Shown: piece after piece, positions 18,903 to 42,359 of the stretch
How positions within the stretch are numbered: the stretch's first letter is position 1
How the letters are laid out: each line of letters starts with the position of its first letter
NCBI GenBank assembly: GCA_016342755.1
Contig: JAEINS010000010.1
Coordinates: forward strand, 1-64,000
From: Melioribacteraceae bacterium
Lineage (GTDB): Bacteria; Bacteroidota; Ignavibacteria; Ignavibacteriales; Melioribacteraceae
Direction of reading: 5' to 3'
DNA: 64,000 nt
Translations under genes and position numbers: made by a program
The notes under the pieces: generated by a model
Databases searched by the model: none
Seen by the model: only the letters and a program-made list of their open reading frames with translations
What the model was told of the DNA's origin: nothing

Positions 18903-19883
18903 TTATATTATCAAAGATTCAAAATAAACTTTCTCTTCTCTAAAATCTATATACTTATACTTGATCAACAACTCATCAATCAGTTTCAATTGAGTTCTTA
19001 AAAATTGCTGATGTTTTTCCGAATTTGTGTTTCGTGGTCGATGATTAAATGCGCTGTTCAGTTTTTCAATTTGTTTAATTATCTCAATACAGTTTTGTGA
19101 TAGATAAGCTTCTCGGAATTTTTCCCAAATATATTCCACAGCAATTTTATTAGGATGAAGCATATCCTTTTCATAAAAGCGATAATCCCGTAAATCATCC
19201 ATCATAATTTCATAAGACGGAAAATATTCAACGTTTGTTTCGTTTACAAATTGATTTATAGCAAGCAATAGTGTTGCTTTGCTAAGCTGATTTTCAACGG
19301 CTCCGTCTTTCCAATGTCTTATTGGACTAACAGTAAAGATAATTTTCATTTTTGGATTGAATTTTCTTAGAAGCTCAACGGTTTTGAAAATATATCCCGA
19401 AACTTGATCCAGAGAAAGCATGTATCTATCAAATTCCTTTTGCGAAATCTTGTGACAATTAGAGACTATCCGGTTTAACTTTTTGTGCTGATAAACAAAC
19501 GAAGTTCCGTATGTAATTGTTATAACATCAGATTTTGAAAGAAACTCACAAACAGTTTTAATTCCCTTATTAATATTATTTAAACAAACTTCTGAATTGT
19601 GATGTGAAAAATCACTATGATGAAAAAAGCTGTGAAATTCAGAATCGTGCTGAAATAAATCTTCTGCGGTGAAGTGTTTATTATCATTTACTAATTTAAG
19701 GCTATTATAAATAGAAGCCGGATTGTATAGAACACCAAACGGATTTTCCATTACGTTAAATTTTAGCTCTGAAAAATATCCGGCAATATTTTCAGCAAAA
19801 CAAGATCCAATCGTCAAAATTGAACTTGAATGATCAATTAATAAACTGCTTTTTTTTAGGTTTATTTCTGTTCTAAAATTCAT
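18903..19883 (-). CDS. GSCFA domain protein (SGNH-hydrolase-like)
   Basis: About 326 residues. The family motif GSCFAENI is at 26-33, and a late DMLHPNKIAVEYIW segment supplies the Asp-x-x-His pair seen in SGNH/GDSL-type esterases, so the fold is probably a serine-type hydrolase in which the GSCFA Ser is the nucleophile candidate. It has no signal peptide and is cytosolic. GSCFA proteins are common in Bacteroidota and their substrate is unknown. I start it at ATG 19881-19883 (MNFRTEINL); the frame extends 19 codons upstream without similarity. It diverges from the motA-motB unit across about 110 bases. Confidence 0.8.
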   Translation of the reverse strand: MNFRTEINLKKSSLLIDHSSSILTIGSCFAENIAGYFSELKFNVMENPFGVLYNPASIYNSLKLVNDNKHFTAEDLFQHDSEFHSFFHHSDFSHHNSEVCLNNINKGIKTVCEFLSKSDVITITYGTSFVYQHKKLNRIVSNCHKISQKEFDRYMLSLDQVSGYIFKTVELLRKFNPKMKIIFTVSPIRHWKDGAVENQLSKATLLLAINQFVNETNVEYFPSYEIMMDDLRDYRFYEKDMLHPNKIAVEYIWEKFREAYLSQNCIEIIKQIEKLNSAFNHRPRNTNSEKHQQFLRTQLKLIDELLIKYKYIDFREEKVYFESLII

Positions 19884-19942
19884 TGTATAAAAGTTTAACA
19901 ATTCTGAAATGTTTACGATAATAGATTGAAATATAAACATTT

Positions 19943-19996
19943 ATGAATCAAAAAAATGATCCGCACAAAAATCAAAATGAGCATCAGATAAAATGA
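19943..19996 (+). CDS. Possible 17-codon leader ORF overlapping motA start
   Basis: ATG at 19943 begins a 17-residue peptide (MNQKNDPHKNQNEHQIK) rich in Asn, Gln, His and Lys. Its TGA at 19994-19996 overlaps the motA ATG in an ATGA arrangement, which often couples translation. motA has only a weak Shine-Dalgarno of its own, so ribosomes finishing this ORF could reinitiate there. It may equally be a chance ORF. There is no sequence similarity to judge by. Confidence 0.3.
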   Translation: MNQKNDPHKNQNEHQIK

Positions 19997-20784
19997 AATC
20001 AATTGCAAAAGAAACCTTAATTGGTATAATACTAGGTATTTCCCTCTTTACATATTCAATTATTTCGGAAACAGATAATTACTTAATGTTTGTAAGCCTT
20101 CCCAGTTTATTAATGGTACTTGGCGGCACAATTGCGGCGGTGATGATCTCTTTCAAATTTGAACATGTAAAGCTTGCTTTAAAAGAGTTTCGTGGAATAT
20201 TAATTCCTCAGAATATAAATCCAGCAACCTTATACGAAGAAGTAGAAAATATAATTTACTGGGCGCGTATTCAAAAAAAAGAAGGTGTGATGGGACTTGA
20301 AAAAGAAGTTCAAAAAGTTCAGGATCCTTTTGTGAAATATGGCGGAGAGCTAGTTGTAACGGGATATCGTGGAGACGAGTTAAGAAAAATGCTTACTAAT
20401 TTTGCTGAAACAACTTATGAGCGCAATATAATTGGATCTCACATTTTAAAAGCTATGGGAAATTTTGCTCCCGGATTTGGAATGTTAGGAACCGTAATCG
20501 GACTTATAATTATGCTCGATCAGATGGGAAACGATGCCAGTTCTTTAGGCAAAGGACTTGCATTTGCATTAATGACTACTTTATACGGAGTATTTCTTGC
20601 AAATATGTTTTTTAAGCCAGCCGGTGAAAAGGCGAAACAGAAGCAGGAAACTTTAAAATTTCGAAATCTTCTTGTTACAGAAGGCTTTGTTTTATTGGGC
20701 GAAAATAAAGATTCAATGTTAATTCAGGATATGCTAAATAGTTTTCTTGATACAGAATATCATTTTTCAGTGATAAAGAAATAG
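19993..20784 (+). CDS. motA: MotA-type stator/proton channel subunit
   Basis: A 263-residue MotA/TolQ/ExbB-superfamily protein of MotA type. TM1 (about 8-26) and TM2 (30-52, with LGGTIAAVMISF) are followed by a cytoplasmic loop of about 100 residues containing ELRKMLTNFAETTYERN. TM3-TM4 carry the signature APGFGMLGTVIGLIIML and LAFALMTTLYGVFLANMFF. MotA pentamers surround two MotB chains and use ion flow to rotate. It lies six bases before motB. No flagellar genes are in the window, so the driven machine is unknown. Length and motifs are normal, in contrast to its partner. Confidence 0.88.
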   Translation: MKSIAKETLIGIILGISLFTYSIISETDNYLMFVSLPSLLMVLGGTIAAVMISFKFEHVKLALKEFRGILIPQNINPATLYEEVENIIYWARIQKKEGVMGLEKEVQKVQDPFVKYGGELVVTGYRGDELRKMLTNFAETTYERNIIGSHILKAMGNFAPGFGMLGTVIGLIIMLDQMGNDASSLGKGLAFALMTTLYGVFLANMFFKPAGEKAKQKQETLKFRNLLVTEGFVLLGENKDSMLIQDMLNSFLDTEYHFSVIKK

Positions 20785-20790
20785 CAAATC

Positions 20791-22569
20791 ATGGATACTT
20801 CAATGATGTCAAATAACGAGATACAGCAGCTTATTCACAAAAAAGCTGAAGAATTAATTTCTGAAAGATTAGAAAAAGAATTAAGCAGTGAACGATCTGC
20901 TTTAATGTCTCAGCAAACTGATGTTGCAAAAAAACAAGAAAGATTAATTGCACAGCAAAAAGAATTATTAAAAGAAAGAGCAAATATTGATAAAGATCTA
21001 AAACAAGTTGAAAAACATACGCTTCAAATTGAAAAAAAGGTAAAAGAAGAAGTTGCCAGAAAAGTACAGGAAATTGAAGATACTAAAAACAGTCTTGTAA
21101 AAAAAGAGGCGGAATTAGAAAAACAGATGCTTCTTCTAGATAAAAAAGTTAAAGAAAAAGTTGAAAAACAAAAGAAGGAATTAGCTGAAAAAATTAAAAC
21201 TGTTGAAATGGAAAAACTTTTAATTGCCAACAAGATTAAAGAAGGCATTGCCGCAAAAAATGAAGAACTAAAAGTAAAAGAAGCTGAACTTGATAAAAGA
21301 GTTAAAGAAATTGCCTCTCAATCAAAAGAAGCACTCGAAAACAAGAAGAAAAATCTTCTTAGCGAAAAAAATGATCTGGCTAAAAAAGAAAAAGAGGCCG
21401 ATCAGAAAATAGAACAAATTCAAATTAAAGTTGAAAAAGATATAGCTATACAAACAACAGATTTGGCGCAGAAAAAAGAGCAGTTATTAAAGCAGGAAAA
21501 AATTCTAAAAGAGCAGACTTTAAATCTTAATAGGCAAGTTGAAGCGGCGGCGGCAAAAAAAGCAAAAGAGGTAATGTTCCGCGAAAGAGAAATTCTTAAA
21601 GCTGAAATCTTTAAAAAAGAAAAAGAGCTTAAGCAAAAATTAAATCTTAAAGATCAGGAAATACCCAAGATTGTAAAAAAAATTAAAGATGAGGTTAATA
21701 GAAAAAAAGCCGAATATGATAAGAAACAAGCCTCGCTGATAATACAGCAAAATGAATTAGCCAGACAGCAAAGTGTTTTTTCTACTAAGCAGCAAGAACT
21801 GCTTAAGAAAGAAAAAGAATTAAAAAAAGCCGCGGGCATATATATTTCAACAAACGAATATGTTGAACAGCCGATTAAGATAAAAAAATCGGAAGAGCCT
21901 TCTGAGGATCAGGACTGGTTAACTACTTATTCAGATGTTATTACACTATTATTAACAATGTTCGTTTTAATGTTCTCATTAGCAAAAGTTGATCAGAATA
22001 AATTTGAAGAAATAAAAAGATCGATAGATATGCAGTTATTAAAAAAAGCTTCTATCGGTACGTTAAACGAAGGTGCCGGAGAATCAATTTTGGGCGAAGT
22101 AAAAGCACGGTTCAAAAATATTTTTGATGAACACCAAATGGGTGAATCGATTGAAATGAATCTTGGGTCAAAAGGATTAAAACTGGAACTTCCCAGTAAA
22201 TCCCTTTACTCGCTTGGATCTGCCGATATAAAACCGGAAATGCTTCCCGTACTTGAAGGAATTGCCAACGCGATTAAAGAAACCGGGTTTAGTAATTTTT
22301 TAATTTCGGTTGAAGGACATACTGATAATATTCCTATTAACACTGCCGTCTATCCCTCCAACTGGGAACTATCGGCAGGAAGAGCAGCAAACATAGTTAA
22401 ATTTCTTATTTCTAAAGACATTTCACCAGCCAGATTAAAAGCTACCGGTTATGCAGATTCTAGACCAAAGGTTCCTAACTTAGATGAAGAAGGTAACTCT
22501 ATTCCGCTAAACCAGGCAAAAAACAGACGGGTTATAATTTTTATTGAAGATCTTAAAGAACGGTCTTAA
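20791..22569 (+). CDS. motB: MotB-type stator subunit with very long N-terminal coiled coil
   Basis: A 592-residue protein. Residues about 10-350 are Lys/Glu-rich uninterrupted coiled coil. A KVKEEV-like word recurs (KVKEEV, KVKEKV, KIKEGI, RVKEIA, KVEKDI, QVEAAA) at spacings of 36, 29, 22, 43 and 36 residues, each a multiple of seven plus one. The MotB core follows: DWLTTYSDVITLLLTMFVLMFSLAKV, with Asp382 as the expected ion-carrying residue, a plug/linker (410-470) and an OmpA-type peptidoglycan-binding domain (about 480-590; EGHTDNIP, SNWELSAGRA, NRRV). Usual MotB proteins have only some 20-30 residues before the membrane helix and about 250-350 in all. The topology of MotB puts the coil in the cytoplasm. 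The gene is coupled to motA. Start: ATG 20791, with later Mets at 5-6 possible. Confidence 0.85.
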   Translation: MDTSMMSNNEIQQLIHKKAEELISERLEKELSSERSALMSQQTDVAKKQERLIAQQKELLKERANIDKDLKQVEKHTLQIEKKVKEEVARKVQEIEDTKNSLVKKEAELEKQMLLLDKKVKEKVEKQKKELAEKIKTVEMEKLLIANKIKEGIAAKNEELKVKEAELDKRVKEIASQSKEALENKKKNLLSEKNDLAKKEKEADQKIEQIQIKVEKDIAIQTTDLAQKKEQLLKQEKILKEQTLNLNRQVEAAAAKKAKEVMFREREILKAEIFKKEKELKQKLNLKDQEIPKIVKKIKDEVNRKKAEYDKKQASLIIQQNELARQQSVFSTKQQELLKKEKELKKAAGIYISTNEYVEQPIKIKKSEEPSEDQDWLTTYSDVITLLLTMFVLMFSLAKVDQNKFEEIKRSIDMQLLKKASIGTLNEGAGESILGEVKARFKNIFDEHQMGESIEMNLGSKGLKLELPSKSLYSLGSADIKPEMLPVLEGIANAIKETGFSNFLISVEGHTDNIPINTAVYPSNWELSAGRAANIVKFLISKDISPARLKATGYADSRPKVPNLDEEGNSIPLNQAKNRRVIIFIEDLKERS

Positions 22570-36793: not shown

Positions 36794-38023
36794 CTATAAC
36801 GCTTTAAGTAGTTGTATCATCCTTGTTTTATTATTTGCATAGGCAACCGCATTATCCCGGTCAATTTTCCTTTGCTTGTATAACCTAAGCAAATCTTGTT
36901 CCATTGTATTCATGCCTTGTGGTGAACCCTGATTAATCATCATATAAATTTCACTTGTATTGTTGTTTTTGATAGCTGCCTTAACACTTGGTGTAGCTAT
37001 TAAAACCTCCTTAGCTAAAATACGTTTGCCATCAACAGTAGGTACAAGTTTCTGAGAAATCACGGTAACTAAAACATCCGCAAGCCTGTTTCTTACACGG
37101 TCTTGTTCAATCGGATTAACCTCAGCAATAATTCTATCAATAGATTCGACCGCCGAAGAGGTATGAAGTGTAGAAAATACCTTATGACCGGTATCTGTTA
37201 CCTCTAAAGCCGCCATAATTGTATCAGGATCTCTCATCTCACCAATCATTATTATATCGGGATCCTGTCTTAATGCCTGAGTTACACCATCTTTAAATGA
37301 AAGAACATCACGTCCAACTTCTCTATGTCTAATAATCGCGACATTAGATTTATGTACAAATTCAATTGGCGAAGCAATAATTACTATATGCGCCGGATCC
37401 ATTGTATTATGATAACCAATAATAGAATCGAGCGTTGTTGATTTACCCGAACCAGTAATACCTGTAATTAGAGATAAACCAAACTTTATATAATTATGAC
37501 TCATCATCCGTAATGCGTTAGGATGAAATTCCAAATTTTCTATTGGATAAATATTAGCTGCAATAGAACGCATATTAAGAGCCAGCGCATCTAAATCAAA
37601 ATAGGAATCGGCTCTAAACCTTACATTCTTCTCTTCTTTATCATAAAAGAATCCGTAACTAAAATCTAAATTTCTAGTTTTAAGAAGATGTTTACACTGA
37701 TATCTATTTAATAAACTAACAATTAAAACAGAAGCTTCGTCCAGAGTTAATTGAGGTAAATCTTCTACTTTTTCTTTTTTACCGAAGACTCTGAACCATA
37801 TATAGCCGCCCGTACCGTATCCGCCAACTTCAATATCAGAAGCCTGTCTTTCTAACATTAAGCTTAGGATATAATTAAACAACTTATGTATAAATAGTTT
37901 TTGTTCTACAGAAATACGTTCATCAAAATGTTCAATGATATAAGTAACTCTTTCTGGTCCAATTACTGTTTGCGGAATTGTCCGAACAAAGCTAGTTAAT
38001 ATATTTTTTGCTTCATTAAGCAT
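36794..38023 (-). CDS. PilT-type retraction ATPase
   Basis: A 409-residue PilT/PilU-family ATPase. Motifs in order: Walker A GITGSGKSTT, an Asp-box region with VIIASPIEFV, Walker B DPDIIMIGEMRD, and the His box GHKVFSTLHTSSAVESIDRI. The N-terminal PAS-like domain covers about 1-170. PilT hexamers depolymerise pili during twitching and DNA uptake. Its presence argues for a retractile type IV pilus rather than a type II secretion system. It starts 66 bases after pilB. ATG is at 38021-38023. Confidence 0.9.
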   Translation of the reverse strand: MLNEAKNILTSFVRTIPQTVIGPERVTYIIEHFDERISVEQKLFIHKLFNYILSLMLERQASDIEVGGYGTGGYIWFRVFGKKEKVEDLPQLTLDEASVLIVSLLNRYQCKHLLKTRNLDFSYGFFYDKEEKNVRFRADSYFDLDALALNMRSIAANIYPIENLEFHPNALRMMSHNYIKFGLSLITGITGSGKSTTLDSIIGYHNTMDPAHIVIIASPIEFVHKSNVAIIRHREVGRDVLSFKDGVTQALRQDPDIIMIGEMRDPDTIMAALEVTDTGHKVFSTLHTSSAVESIDRIIAEVNPIEQDRVRNRLADVLVTVISQKLVPTVDGKRILAKEVLIATPSVKAAIKNNNTSEIYMMINQGSPQGMNTMEQDLLRLYKQRKIDRDNAVAYANNKTRMIQLLKAL

Positions 38024-39894: not shown

Positions 39895-41235
39895 CTACAT
39901 TCCTGGTTTAGGAGGACTTATTGTTGCTGTTTCTGCCGAAACAATTGTTAAGGCCGTCATAACAACCATAATAACCATAGCAATTACAACCTGAACCATT
40001 TCAATTATATTTTTCATTCTATACACAGTTTCACTTTCATAATAATTTGCTAATTGAAGAGCTGTGTTTTTAATTGTACCTGTCTCTTCTCCGGAGTGGA
40101 ATCTTGAAATTGCCGTCTCTGTAAAAACTCCTGCTGCTTCAAAAGAATCTGTCAGACCTACACCTTTTTTTATCATTAAAGGAATAGCTACATCTTTAAT
40201 CTGTTTTTCAAAGTAAGAATTACCACAGGCTTCAGCCGCAATTCTGATCGGTTCTATACTTTCAGCAGAGCCGGTGTATAAGGTATAAAATACACGGCAA
40301 AATACTTCTATTGTTGTTTTATGAACAAGACTGCCGATAATAGGAACTTTCATTAAATATTTATCAAAAATTAATTTGCCCTTTTCTGTTCTGATCCATT
40401 GAAAAAATACAATAGGCGGTACAAATATAATTAACGCTATAATAATCGGGTTATTTAAAAGAAGATCACTAAATTCTAAAGTCGCGGCTGTCATTGGCGG
40501 TAATTCAATATCAAATTTCTCGAAAAGTTTTGCTGTTTCCGGGAAAATATAACCTACATAAAATAAAACCGCTAAAAATAAAACAAAGAGTGTAATAAAC
40601 GGAGTAATAAGAGCGCTTCTCATATCTTTACTAAACTGCATTTGTCTTTCCAGAAATTTAGCGGTTGCTTTATAAATTTCAGCCATATTACCGCTTTTTG
40701 CAGCAAGTCCTAACATATAAGCCGTAAATCTTCCAAAAACCGATTCGTATTTTAGAAATGTAACTTCACTATCCGCGCCTGATTTAAGATCGTTATTTAT
40801 TTGTTTTAAAGTTTCGCGGAGTGTTTTATTTTCTAAGTCTGCTGTAAGAAGAGTCATTATCTCAGAATAGGGCAGTTTTTGATCAAGTAGTTCGGCACTT
40901 ATTTTTACAAAAGAAACTATTTCCTGCTGCGGCGGTTTGGGGTTATATTCGAATAAAACTTTATTTACGGAAATTACTTCATAACCCATTTTTGTAAGTG
41001 CCCGTACAACTTCCTCTTTATTATATGCTTTCTGCTCACCTTTTGTGGGCTTTTCTGTACCTTTTCTTACTTTATATAAAAAAGTAGACTTACTCTCTAT
41101 CTTTTCAATAGTTAAACTATGATTAGCGGCTAAATCCTTAACCTTTTTTTTGCCCTCGCGTAATGTAGCCGAACTAAGGTTACCACTAATAACTTTACCG
41201 TTTGGTTTTTTTGCAAAAAATCTAATTTCGACCAT
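39895..41235 (-). CDS. pilC: PilC/GspF-type inner-membrane platform protein
   Basis: A 446-residue platform protein. The N-terminus (1-105) is a longer basic region than usual. Two GspF domains follow, with TM helices near 215-235 (FITLFVLFLAVLFYVGYIF), 270-285 and close to the C-terminus (VVIAMVIMVVMTALTIV). The family motif FHSGEETGTIKN is present. It binds PilB/PilT and guides pilins into the fibre. It is the first gene after the pilin pair, separated by a terminator and about 200 bases, so it may have its own promoter or receive read-through. Confidence 0.92.
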   Translation of the reverse strand: MVEIRFFAKKPNGKVISGNLSSATLREGKKKVKDLAANHSLTIEKIESKSTFLYKVRKGTEKPTKGEQKAYNKEEVVRALTKMGYEVISVNKVLFEYNPKPPQQEIVSFVKISAELLDQKLPYSEIMTLLTADLENKTLRETLKQINNDLKSGADSEVTFLKYESVFGRFTAYMLGLAAKSGNMAEIYKATAKFLERQMQFSKDMRSALITPFITLFVLFLAVLFYVGYIFPETAKLFEKFDIELPPMTAATLEFSDLLLNNPIIIALIIFVPPIVFFQWIRTEKGKLIFDKYLMKVPIIGSLVHKTTIEVFCRVFYTLYTGSAESIEPIRIAAEACGNSYFEKQIKDVAIPLMIKKGVGLTDSFEAAGVFTETAISRFHSGEETGTIKNTALQLANYYESETVYRMKNIIEMVQVVIAMVIMVVMTALTIVSAETATISPPKPGM

Positions 41236-41498: not shown

Positions 41499-41918
41499 TT
41501 AGTCATTTACAGTTGTGCTTGTTACTGTAATATTATCTGGAGTTACAGTAACAACTACGGCAATATTAACACCGGCAGTTGCGTTTTTAGATGTACCAGT
41601 TGCAGTTAATGTTAAAGTCTGTGGAGCAGCTACTGGCACAACAGCAGCAGACATATTTGCAGTTTGTAACAATGATGGAGGAATAGCAAATGCAGTACTA
41701 TTTGCAGCAGAACCATCAAATGTGTTTCCACCACCACCCATTGCAGCAGGTTTTCTATAATGTTGCTGTGCCATAGCACCAATTGTTTGTAAATCAGAAA
41801 TTAATGCGTCATTGTTGGCAGATAAACTACTTGCTGTAAATACATTCATACCTACAACTACCGCGATTCCTACTATGATTACACCAAGAACGATTAATAA
41901 TAATTGCTGTTGTCCCAT
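41499..41918 (-). CDS. Pilin-like protein with minimal leader (paralogue 2)
   Basis: A 139-residue protein starting MGQQQLLLIVLG, then a hydrophobic helix to about residue 23 and a small Ala/Thr/Val-rich globular part. It is clearly paralogous to the next gene: both share the first 12 residues, a long N-terminal helix, and an AMGGGGN motif near residue 60. It lacks the classic prepilin leader and Glu5; if prepilin peptidase cuts after Gly2, position 5 of the mature chain is Leu. Placement directly before pilC-pilB-pilT and the size argue for the major or minor pilin of this system. It is 60 bases from paralogue 1 and followed by a terminator. Start: ATG 41916-41918. Confidence 0.8.
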   Translation of the reverse strand: MGQQQLLLIVLGVIIVGIAVVVGMNVFTASSLSANNDALISDLQTIGAMAQQHYRKPAAMGGGGNTFDGSAANSTAFAIPPSLLQTANMSAAVVPVAAPQTLTLTATGTSKNATAGVNIAVVVTVTPDNITVTSTTVND

Positions 41919-41978: not shown

Positions 41979-42359
41979 TTAGTGAATAACTTCCGTTGTA
42001 AAACTTTCAGATGTAACAGTCATTTTAACTTCAATAAGATCATTGTCCTGAACTACTTCATTTCCTATGCCAGTTATTTCAACACTCTGGGCAGTAACAG
42101 CCGCTGTAAAAGTTCCGTCAGCATTTGTCTTTAAACTTGTCGGAATATCCCAACCTGTAAACTCGTTTCCGCCGCCACCCATAGCTTTCGGTATCTTGTG
42201 ATATTTCTGAGCTTCACTTGCAAGATGTATAAGATCATTAATTACATTGTTTCTTTTATTCTCTATCGCGTTAGCCTTAAAGACGCTAATTCCAACTGTT
42301 ATAGCTACACCGACAATTATAATGCCAAGTACGATCAATAAAAGTTGCTGCTGTCCCAA
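41979..42359 (-). CDS. Pilin-like protein with minimal leader (paralogue 1)
   Basis: A 126-residue protein, MGQQQLLLIVLG start, helix to about residue 23, then a charged helix extension (NKRNNVINDLIHLASEAQKY) and the IPKAMGGGGNEFTGWDIP segment shared with paralogue 2. The tail is beta-rich. As in its paralogue there is no prepilin leader beyond Met-Gly and no Glu5. The start is TTG at 42357-42359 behind AAAGGTGATAA, a strong ribosome site; that the identical MGQQQ sequence follows confirms this start. A sigma54 promoter match lies about 57 bases upstream. It is first in the pilus cluster. Confidence 0.8.
   Translation of the reverse strand: MGQQQLLLIVLGIIIVGVAITVGISVFKANAIENKRNNVINDLIHLASEAQKYHKIPKAMGGGGNEFTGWDIPTSLKTNADGTFTAAVTAQSVEITGIGNEVVQDNDLIEVKMTVTSESFTTEVIH

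What the first reader, a model, noticed from the sequence alone, without database searches (positions are those of the whole stretch)
20791..22569. MotB with a ~340-residue cytoplasmic coiled coil
Seen: residues about 10-350 are continuous Lys/Glu-rich coil before a normal MotB membrane helix (Asp382) and OmpA-type domain. Six variants of a KVKEEV word recur at spacings 36, 29, 22, 43 and 36, all seven-multiples plus one, which looks like growth of the coil by in-register duplication. Known: ordinary MotB has a short cytoplasmic N-terminus, and long tails in this superfamily are reported on the MotA-like ZorA of Zorya defence, not on MotB. Inferred: a rod of roughly 50 nm (0.15 nm per residue) projecting into the cytoplasm and turned or held by the MotA ring. 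No flagellar or Zorya genes are nearby, so this may be a stator for another machine.
Basis: partly seen in the sequence, partly recalled or inferred. Interest (0 to 1): 0.75.

Follow-up and report, generated by a model that had tools for sequence, protein, structure and literature searches.

The report
Flagellar-type stator with 50-nm cytoplasmic rod
A bacterium of the family Melioribacteraceae carries, besides its two ordinary flagellar motor stators, a third ion-driven stator whose MotB subunit has a roughly 340-residue coiled-coil rod reaching into the cell; relatives have a short version of it, and most evidence says it serves the flagellum rather than an unknown machine.

Summary
ORF 20791-22569 encodes a 592-residue MotB with about 340 residues of Lys/Glu-rich helix (AlphaFold helices 8-185 and 195-347), a roughly 30-residue linker, then a normal MotB membrane helix (Asp382) and OmpA domain, directly behind a MotA gene (19993-20784). 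Among 181 MotB proteins compared, the median is 28 residues up to the Asp; this one has 382. The next four longest (86-95) are its own orthologs, so a cytoplasmic coil is a trait of this stator clade, greatly lengthened here. The 'KVKEEV at 7n+1' pattern reflects a 3.6-3.63-residue hydrophobic period; duplication is not demonstrable. 'No flagellar genes nearby' misled: the genome has a flagellum, two other stators and one FliG. Orthologs occur in flagellated Ignavibacteria; in the one congener without flagellin, FliG or any MotB, the pair is an internally deleted remnant. MotA keeps the Lys90/Glu98 FliG-contact signature, which the sister clade (stators of a non-flagellar FliF-FliG fusion rotor) has lost, and a sigma28-like promoter precedes motA. 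Best reading: an accessory flagellar stator whose MotB dimer holds a static cytoplasmic tether/spacer rod. The rod's partner and function are unknown and untested.

The parts
19894..19922 (+). sigma28-like promoter candidate (TTTAAC, 16 bases, CGATAAT) upstream of motA
   Evidence: 11 of 13 match to CTAAAC-N16-CGATAAT, the element found before flagellin genes of this genome and two relatives (13/13) and a third (12/13); shuffle p 0.01; joint second of 49 upstream regions in the window
19993..20784 (+). motA, 263 aa, A subunit of the stator
   Evidence: PF01618 2.6e-22; aligned over its length with solved flagellar MotA/PomA, 6ysl 3.7e-31; Lys/Glu at E. coli positions 90/98
20791..22569 (+). 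motB, 592 aa, B subunit with long cytoplasmic N-terminal coil
20812..21345 (+). residues 8-185: first coil helix; residues 11-30 (the tip) match the N-terminal tip of orthologs
   Evidence: AlphaFold helix; period 3.60 above all 300 shuffles; tip match to the G054 ortholog score 49 against shuffle maximum 36
21373..21831 (+). residues 195-347: second coil helix; contains a proline at residue 292
   Evidence: periodicity weaker, not above shuffles on its own
21832..21927 (+). residues 348-379: flexible linker between coil and membrane helix, of similar length in the g29 orthologs
   Evidence: low pLDDT; alignment of orthologs
21928..21990 (+). residues 380-400: membrane helix with channel Asp382 (codon 21934-21936)
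   Evidence: PF13677; W376 and D382 invariant in 12 relatives
21994..22050 (+). residues 402-420: helix after the membrane helix, plug region
22213..22491 (+). residues 475-567: OmpA-type peptidoglycan-binding domain
   Evidence: PF00691 1.1e-12; Foldseek to MotS/PomB/MotB periplasmic domains about 1e-11; GHTD, NWELS..RA and NRR residues invariant

Best explanation
It is a third, accessory flagellar stator (MotA5MotB2 type, inferred from homology). Its MotA ring drives the flagellar FliG ring in the ordinary way, powered by ion flow past MotB Asp382. Its MotB dimer is held to peptidoglycan by the OmpA domain. The two MotB N-termini leave the centre of the MotA ring through a flexible linker of about 30 residues and form a nearly straight parallel two-stranded coil of about 340 residues, about 50 nm if continuous (0.15 nm per residue). 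Because MotB is wall-anchored, the coil should stand still while MotA turns, and act as a cytoplasmic tether or spacer that holds or positions the stator at or beside the C-ring or another cytoplasmic structure, probably through its conserved distal tip. Shown by sequence: gene pair, domains, coil, related tip and linker, FliG-contact signature, ortholog distribution, remnant in a relative without flagella. Inferred: dimeric coil, thread-through geometry, flagellar docking, tether role.
For: Own genome has one FliG, FlhA, flagellins and a flagellar locus with two ordinary stators, and no FliF-FliG fusion of the kind used by the sister clade. MotA carries K/E at E. coli positions 90/98, as do all 4 members of the clade in the tree; flagellar MotAs mostly have R or Q with E or D; none of 21 sister-clade stators labelled as fusion-rotor stators has Glu98. 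The own FliG keeps the whole torque-helix charge set, K264 R281 E288 E289 K297 in E. coli numbering. Orthologs (MotA 64-67% identical, MotB C-terminal part 49-53% in g29) occur in genus g29 and in G054 of another family; G028, G275, G276 and G278 hold FliG, G054 holds a flagellin. The g29 genome G277 has no flagellin, FliG or MotB_plug and a broken FlhA, and keeps the pair only as MotA 1-131 fused to MotB 263-285 beside dgt. Sigma28-like element upstream, p about 0.01 each in window, G275 and G054. A charged cytoplasmic coil is present in all orthologs.
Against: The tree puts the clade next to stators of a non-flagellar FliF-FliG fusion rotor (support 100), far from the genome's own two flagellar stators. 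The gene pair is not in a flagellar locus. The promoter element is imperfect, weak in G028 and absent in G276. The co-loss is one case in draft genomes. The 340-residue form is known from a single genome. No partner of the rod is identified, and no complex could be modelled (monomer tool only).
Confidence: 0.57

Rival explanations
1. Stator of a non-flagellar machine: the clade came from stators that turn a membrane-anchored FliF-FliG-like ring, and still drives some other partner, now through or with the cytoplasmic rod.
For: Sister group in the tree is the FliF-FliG-fusion stators of Fibrobacterota and another family of the phylum, most of whose genomes in that family lack FlhA; solitary gene pair beside unrelated genes (dgt in g29, uvrA here).
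Against: No fusion rotor in own or g29 genomes; flagellar FliG-contact signature kept; decayed in the genome that lost flagella; sigma28-like promoter.
Confidence: 0.2
2. The rod is the output: MotA is held and the MotB dimer spins, so the coil works as a drive shaft into the cytoplasm.
For: The rod lies on the symmetry axis of the motor (inferred from known 5:2 structures); the coil is long and nearly straight.
Against: OmpA domain has the conserved peptidoglycan-binding residues and folds like known ones, so MotB should be fixed; a flexible linker of about 30 residues sits between membrane helix and rod and would transmit torque badly.
Confidence: 0.05
3. The long coil is functionally slack: a small coil that helps MotB dimerise was lengthened neutrally, and length does not matter.
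For: Orthologs manage with an N-terminus of 86-95 residues up to the Asp; the long form is seen in one genome; no sequence-specific repeats.
Against: Hydrophobic periodicity is kept over about 340 residues, which suggests selection for an intact coil.
Confidence: 0.13
4. Zorya-like anti-phage motor with the tail moved to the B subunit.
For: ZorB models hit the MotB domain (1e-15), as expected of any MotB/OmpA protein.
Against: No ZorA hit, and none of the window neighbours examined with Pfam looks like another Zorya component; MotA is flagellar type with no C-terminal tail.
Confidence: 0.02
5. Assembly or gene-fusion artefact.
For: Single genome, draft contigs.
Against: Open frame throughout, 9 bases after the last MotA codon; the far N-terminal tip matches the G054 ortholog tip and the linker and MotB domain match too, so the coil lies inside one orthologous gene; GC of the coil part (30%) is near that of the rest (36%).
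Confidence: 0.03

Closest known systems
Flagellar stators MotPS/PomAB/MotCD-type (e.g. 6ysl, 6ysf/8ucs, 8bri), including accessory stators such as Bacillus MotPS and Pseudomonas MotCD
   Same: MotA with FliG-contact motif, MotB Asp, plug region, OmpA domain; second or third stator in a flagellated cell; best NCBIfam models MotP and MotD, below their cut-offs
   Different: About 340-residue cytoplasmic coil on MotB; solitary locus; phylogenetically apart from the cell's own two stators
Orthologs in genus g29 and in G054 (same order)
   Same: Same gene pair, MotA 64-67% identical, cytoplasmic coil and linker
   Different: 86-95 residues up to the channel Asp instead of 382
Non-flagellar FliF-FliG-fusion operon stators (Fibrobacterota and family f27)
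   Same: Sister clade of MotA/MotB
   Different: Only about 14-25 residues before the membrane helix, Glu98 lost, co-encoded with a periplasmic FliF-RBM3-like + membrane + FliG fusion
Zorya ZorAB
   Same: 5:2 motor family with an elongated cytoplasmic element
   Different: The tail is on the five ZorA C-termini (PMC11890865); here it is on the MotB N-termini
GldLM of gliding/T9SS
   Same: Long cytoplasmic tail proposed as an anchor to a cytoplasmic structure (PMC9389320)
   Different: Tail on the pentameric subunit; unrelated B subunit architecture

Membership tests
Flagellar MotAB stator | MotA with large cytoplasmic torque-generating region and charged FliG-contact residues (E. coli R90, E98) | tested here: met
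   Lys and Glu at these positions in all four clade members of the tree alignment; full-length match to flagellar MotA/PomA
Flagellar MotAB stator | MotB membrane helix with channel Asp, plug, OmpA peptidoglycan-binding domain | tested here: met
   PF13677 and PF00691, D382 invariant, fold matches to MotS/PomB periplasmic domains
Flagellar MotAB stator | A flagellar FliG rotor in the same genome | tested here: met
   One FliG with complete torque-helix charges
Flagellar MotAB stator | Co-occurrence with flagella | tested here: met
   Intact only in genomes with FliG or flagellin; remnant in the one g29 genome without. Small numbers
Flagellar MotAB stator | Groups with flagellar stators in a tree | tested here: inconclusive
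   Groups with FliF-FliG-fusion stators
Flagellar MotAB stator | Incorporates into the motor and generates torque | not testable with these tools
   Needs experiment
FliF-FliG-fusion-associated stators | Co-encoded membrane FliG fusion protein | tested here: not met
   No such gene in own or g29 genomes
FliF-FliG-fusion-associated stators | MotA without Glu98 | tested here: not met
   Glu present
Zorya | ZorA with long C-terminal tail | tested here: not met
   No ZorA hit; MotA is 263 aa, flagellar type
Zorya | ZorC/ZorD or ZorE adjacent | tested here: not met
   Adjacent genes are a GSCFA-family gene (upstream, other strand) and uvrA (downstream)

The most novel reading that the evidence does not exclude
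A 5:2 rotary motor in which the B-subunit dimer, not the A ring, carries a rod of about 50 nm into the cytoplasm that docks the stator to, or works on, a cytoplasmic structure: a new mechanical element for stators, in a clade that moved from a non-flagellar FliF-FliG rotor to the flagellum.
Probability: 0.22. Interest if true: 0.75.

Novelty: new variant of a known kind. Interest (0 to 1): 0.5.

Why it matters
Stators are usually thought to be held only from the wall side by MotB's OmpA domain. A stator with a long rod on the cytoplasmic end of MotB would allow anchoring, sensing or positioning from inside the cell, and the short-coil orthologs give a natural length series to test it. The clade also sits beside stators of a non-flagellar FliF-FliG fusion rotor, so it bears on how stators move between machines.

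Tried and rejected
(1) Long MotB frames (546-663 aa) in family f27 looked like further long N-termini but are long at the C-terminus; one examined carries SPOR. (2) L052 seemed to have at least 132 N-terminal residues: this is a frame running off the contig. (3) Long frames in Pseudomonadota: all twenty examined have short true N-termini; the 626-aa case reads through upstream sequence. (4) In-register duplication: not above pattern-preserving shuffles, no clear DNA repeats. (5) Zorya: rejected. (6) A FliF-FliG fusion partner in the same genome: searched with a profile, only flagellar FliG found. (7) Plasmid origin: the best plasmid match is a 37%-identical MotB domain, none of the listed matches covers the coil. 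(8) Literature: six searches, on MotB N-terminal coils, MotA-superfamily tails, non-flagellar FliG rotors and motility in these groups, showed no described MotB of this kind in the titles and abstracts listed; only open-licence papers are covered. (9) A multimer model was not available; the monomer model shows helices, not the oligomer. (10) A further search of Fibrobacterota with the clade's MotA profile gave only the fusion-rotor type with short MotB N-termini in the four loci read.

Full report
OBSERVATION. The window holds an uninterrupted ORF at 20791-22569 (592 aa) directly after a 263-aa motA (19993-20784); motB begins 9 bases after the last MotA codon. Pfam finds MotA_ExbB in the first, MotB_plug (365-413) and OmpA (475-567) in the second. 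Residues 10-352 hold 75 Lys and 55 Glu but also regular hydrophobics. AlphaFold with 12 sequences gives helices 8-185 and 195-347, a low-confidence stretch at 350-378, membrane helix 380-400, a plug-region helix 402-420 and an OmpA fold; the last matches MotS, PomB and MotB periplasmic domains at about 1e-11. The hydrophobic period over 8-347 is 3.62 with power 14.0 against at most 8.5 in 300 shuffles; the canonical heptad period 3.5 gives only 3.8. So the coil is real and nearly straight (a period between heptad and hendecad). Self-similarity at lag 36 is within shuffles that keep only the charge and hydrophobic pattern, and no clear DNA repeat remains, so duplication is not shown.

HOW UNUSUAL. 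In 181 distinct MotB-like ORFs fetched from many phyla the median number of residues up to the channel Asp is 28, the 95th percentile 71; this protein has 382 and the next four (95, 87, 86, 86) are all its orthologs. In 200 Pseudomonadota genomes twenty of the longest listed MotB frames all proved to have short N-termini. In 58 relatives and in 198 genomes of the phylum no other long N-terminus was found; the long frames of family f27 are C-terminal extensions, with SPOR in the one examined.

WHERE IT COMES FROM. It encodes two more MotB proteins in a flagellar locus (FlgF/G, FlgH, FlgI, FlgK, FlgL-like), FlhA, one FliG and flagellins. Orthologs of the window's pair were found only in genus g29 of the same family and in G054 of another family of the order, out of 79 family and 391 class genomes. 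MotA is 64-67% identical, the next best MotAs under 38%. In g29 the pair is followed by dgt, here by uvrA. All orthologs have a charged cytoplasmic helix of some 50-65 residues before a linker. The far N-terminal tip of the long coil (IQQLIHKKAEELISERLEKE) is the best match along the coil for the tip of the G054 protein (LQRLIKERADKIVDERIQSE; score 49, shuffle maximum 36), and the same register is best or second best for two of the three g29 proteins, though not above shuffles there. The expansion therefore most likely lies inside the gene, between a conserved tip and a conserved linker, which also speaks against an assembly fusion.

FLAGELLAR OR NOT. A 143-row tree of MotA plus MotB puts the clade (99) next to stators (joint node 100) from Fibrobacterota and family f27 of the phylum. 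Those stand in a conserved operon with a 600-aa protein that carries FliG domains (PF01706 2.5e-20) after a membrane segment and a periplasmic part; its model matches FliG (1e-9) and, more weakly, the FliF RBM3/MS-ring domain, i.e. a natural FliF-FliG fusion. Most of the f27 genomes tested lack FlhA. This would favour a non-flagellar role. But the own genome and g29 have no such fusion; the clade's MotA keeps Lys/Glu at the E. coli R90/E98 positions while none of the 21 fusion-rotor stators so labelled in the tree has Glu98; and the flagellar FliG has the full charge set on its torque helix while the fusion FliGs have lost much of it. FliG is present in G028, G275, G276 and G278, a flagellin in G054. 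G277, a g29 genome without flagellin, FliG or any MotB_plug and with a broken FlhA, retains only MotA 1-131 fused to MotB 263-285 at the place syntenic with G028. A sigma28-like element, CTAAAC-N16-CGATAAT, stands before flagellin genes of these genomes (12-13 of 13), and 11 of 13 positions match before motA in the window, G275, G278 and G054 (p about 0.01 each), weaker in G028, absent in G276. I put about three in four on a flagellar accessory stator.

MECHANISM. From established structures of 5:2 motors (6ysl, 6ysf, 8bri and others) MotB's N-termini lie on the cytoplasmic axis of the MotA ring (general knowledge). A linker of about 30 flexible residues could cross the MotA cytoplasmic ring, and the coil would begin below it. 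With the OmpA domain's peptidoglycan-binding residues intact, MotB and hence the rod should be stationary while MotA turns against FliG. The most likely use of a stationary rod with a conserved tip is tethering or positioning, at the C-ring or a cytoplasmic partner. This last step is inference; no partner was found. Ion type: the membrane motifs (GMLGT, ALMTTLYG) resemble PomA/MotP, which suggests Na+, but the genome's first flagellar MotA has a similar first motif, so this is not decisive.

VERDICT. A genuine, so far single-genome variant of a known kind of motor, with a short-coil ortholog series that makes it testable.

Noticed in passing
L159:2847-7901, L160:2328-7312, L164:1631-6684, L165:6667-11692, L034:906-6684, L035:809-6615: Conserved five-gene operon in Fibrobacterota and in family f27 (probably Balneolaceae, my inference): a natural FliF-RBM3-like + membrane + FliG fusion, a secreted protein of about 365 aa, a TPR lipoprotein, MotA, MotB. 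Most of the f27 genomes tested have no FlhA, so this looks like an undescribed non-flagellar rotor-stator machine; the literature searches listed no description.
   Followed up: partly
L146-L157 (e.g. L154:71-8016): A second version in the same family: a protein of about 995 aa with a TPR-like C-terminal part, a FliF-FliG-like protein of 610-640 aa, a small TPR protein, MotA, and a MotB with a long C-terminal extension (SPOR found in the one examined); often in the same genome as the first version.
   Followed up: partly
G277 (L206:3489-3953; L209): A g29 genome in the course of losing its flagellum: fliP/fliR/fliN/fliL-like genes remain, flhA is broken, and fliG, flagellin and all MotB are missing; the motAB remnant is an in-frame internal deletion.
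   Followed up: partly
window 36797-38023 (-), with 39898-41235 (-), 41502-41918 (-) and 41982-42359 (-): Type II secretion/type IV pilus-like cluster (T2SSE ATPase, T2SSF, two small proteins with near-identical pilin-like starts MGQQQLLLIVLG); the ATPase gene has a sigma28-like element upstream that scores higher than that of motA.
   Followed up: no
window 19881-19992: The gene divergent from motA (GSCFA family) probably starts at about 19883 rather than 19940, leaving a shared intergenic region of about 110 bases with the promoter candidate.
   Followed up: no
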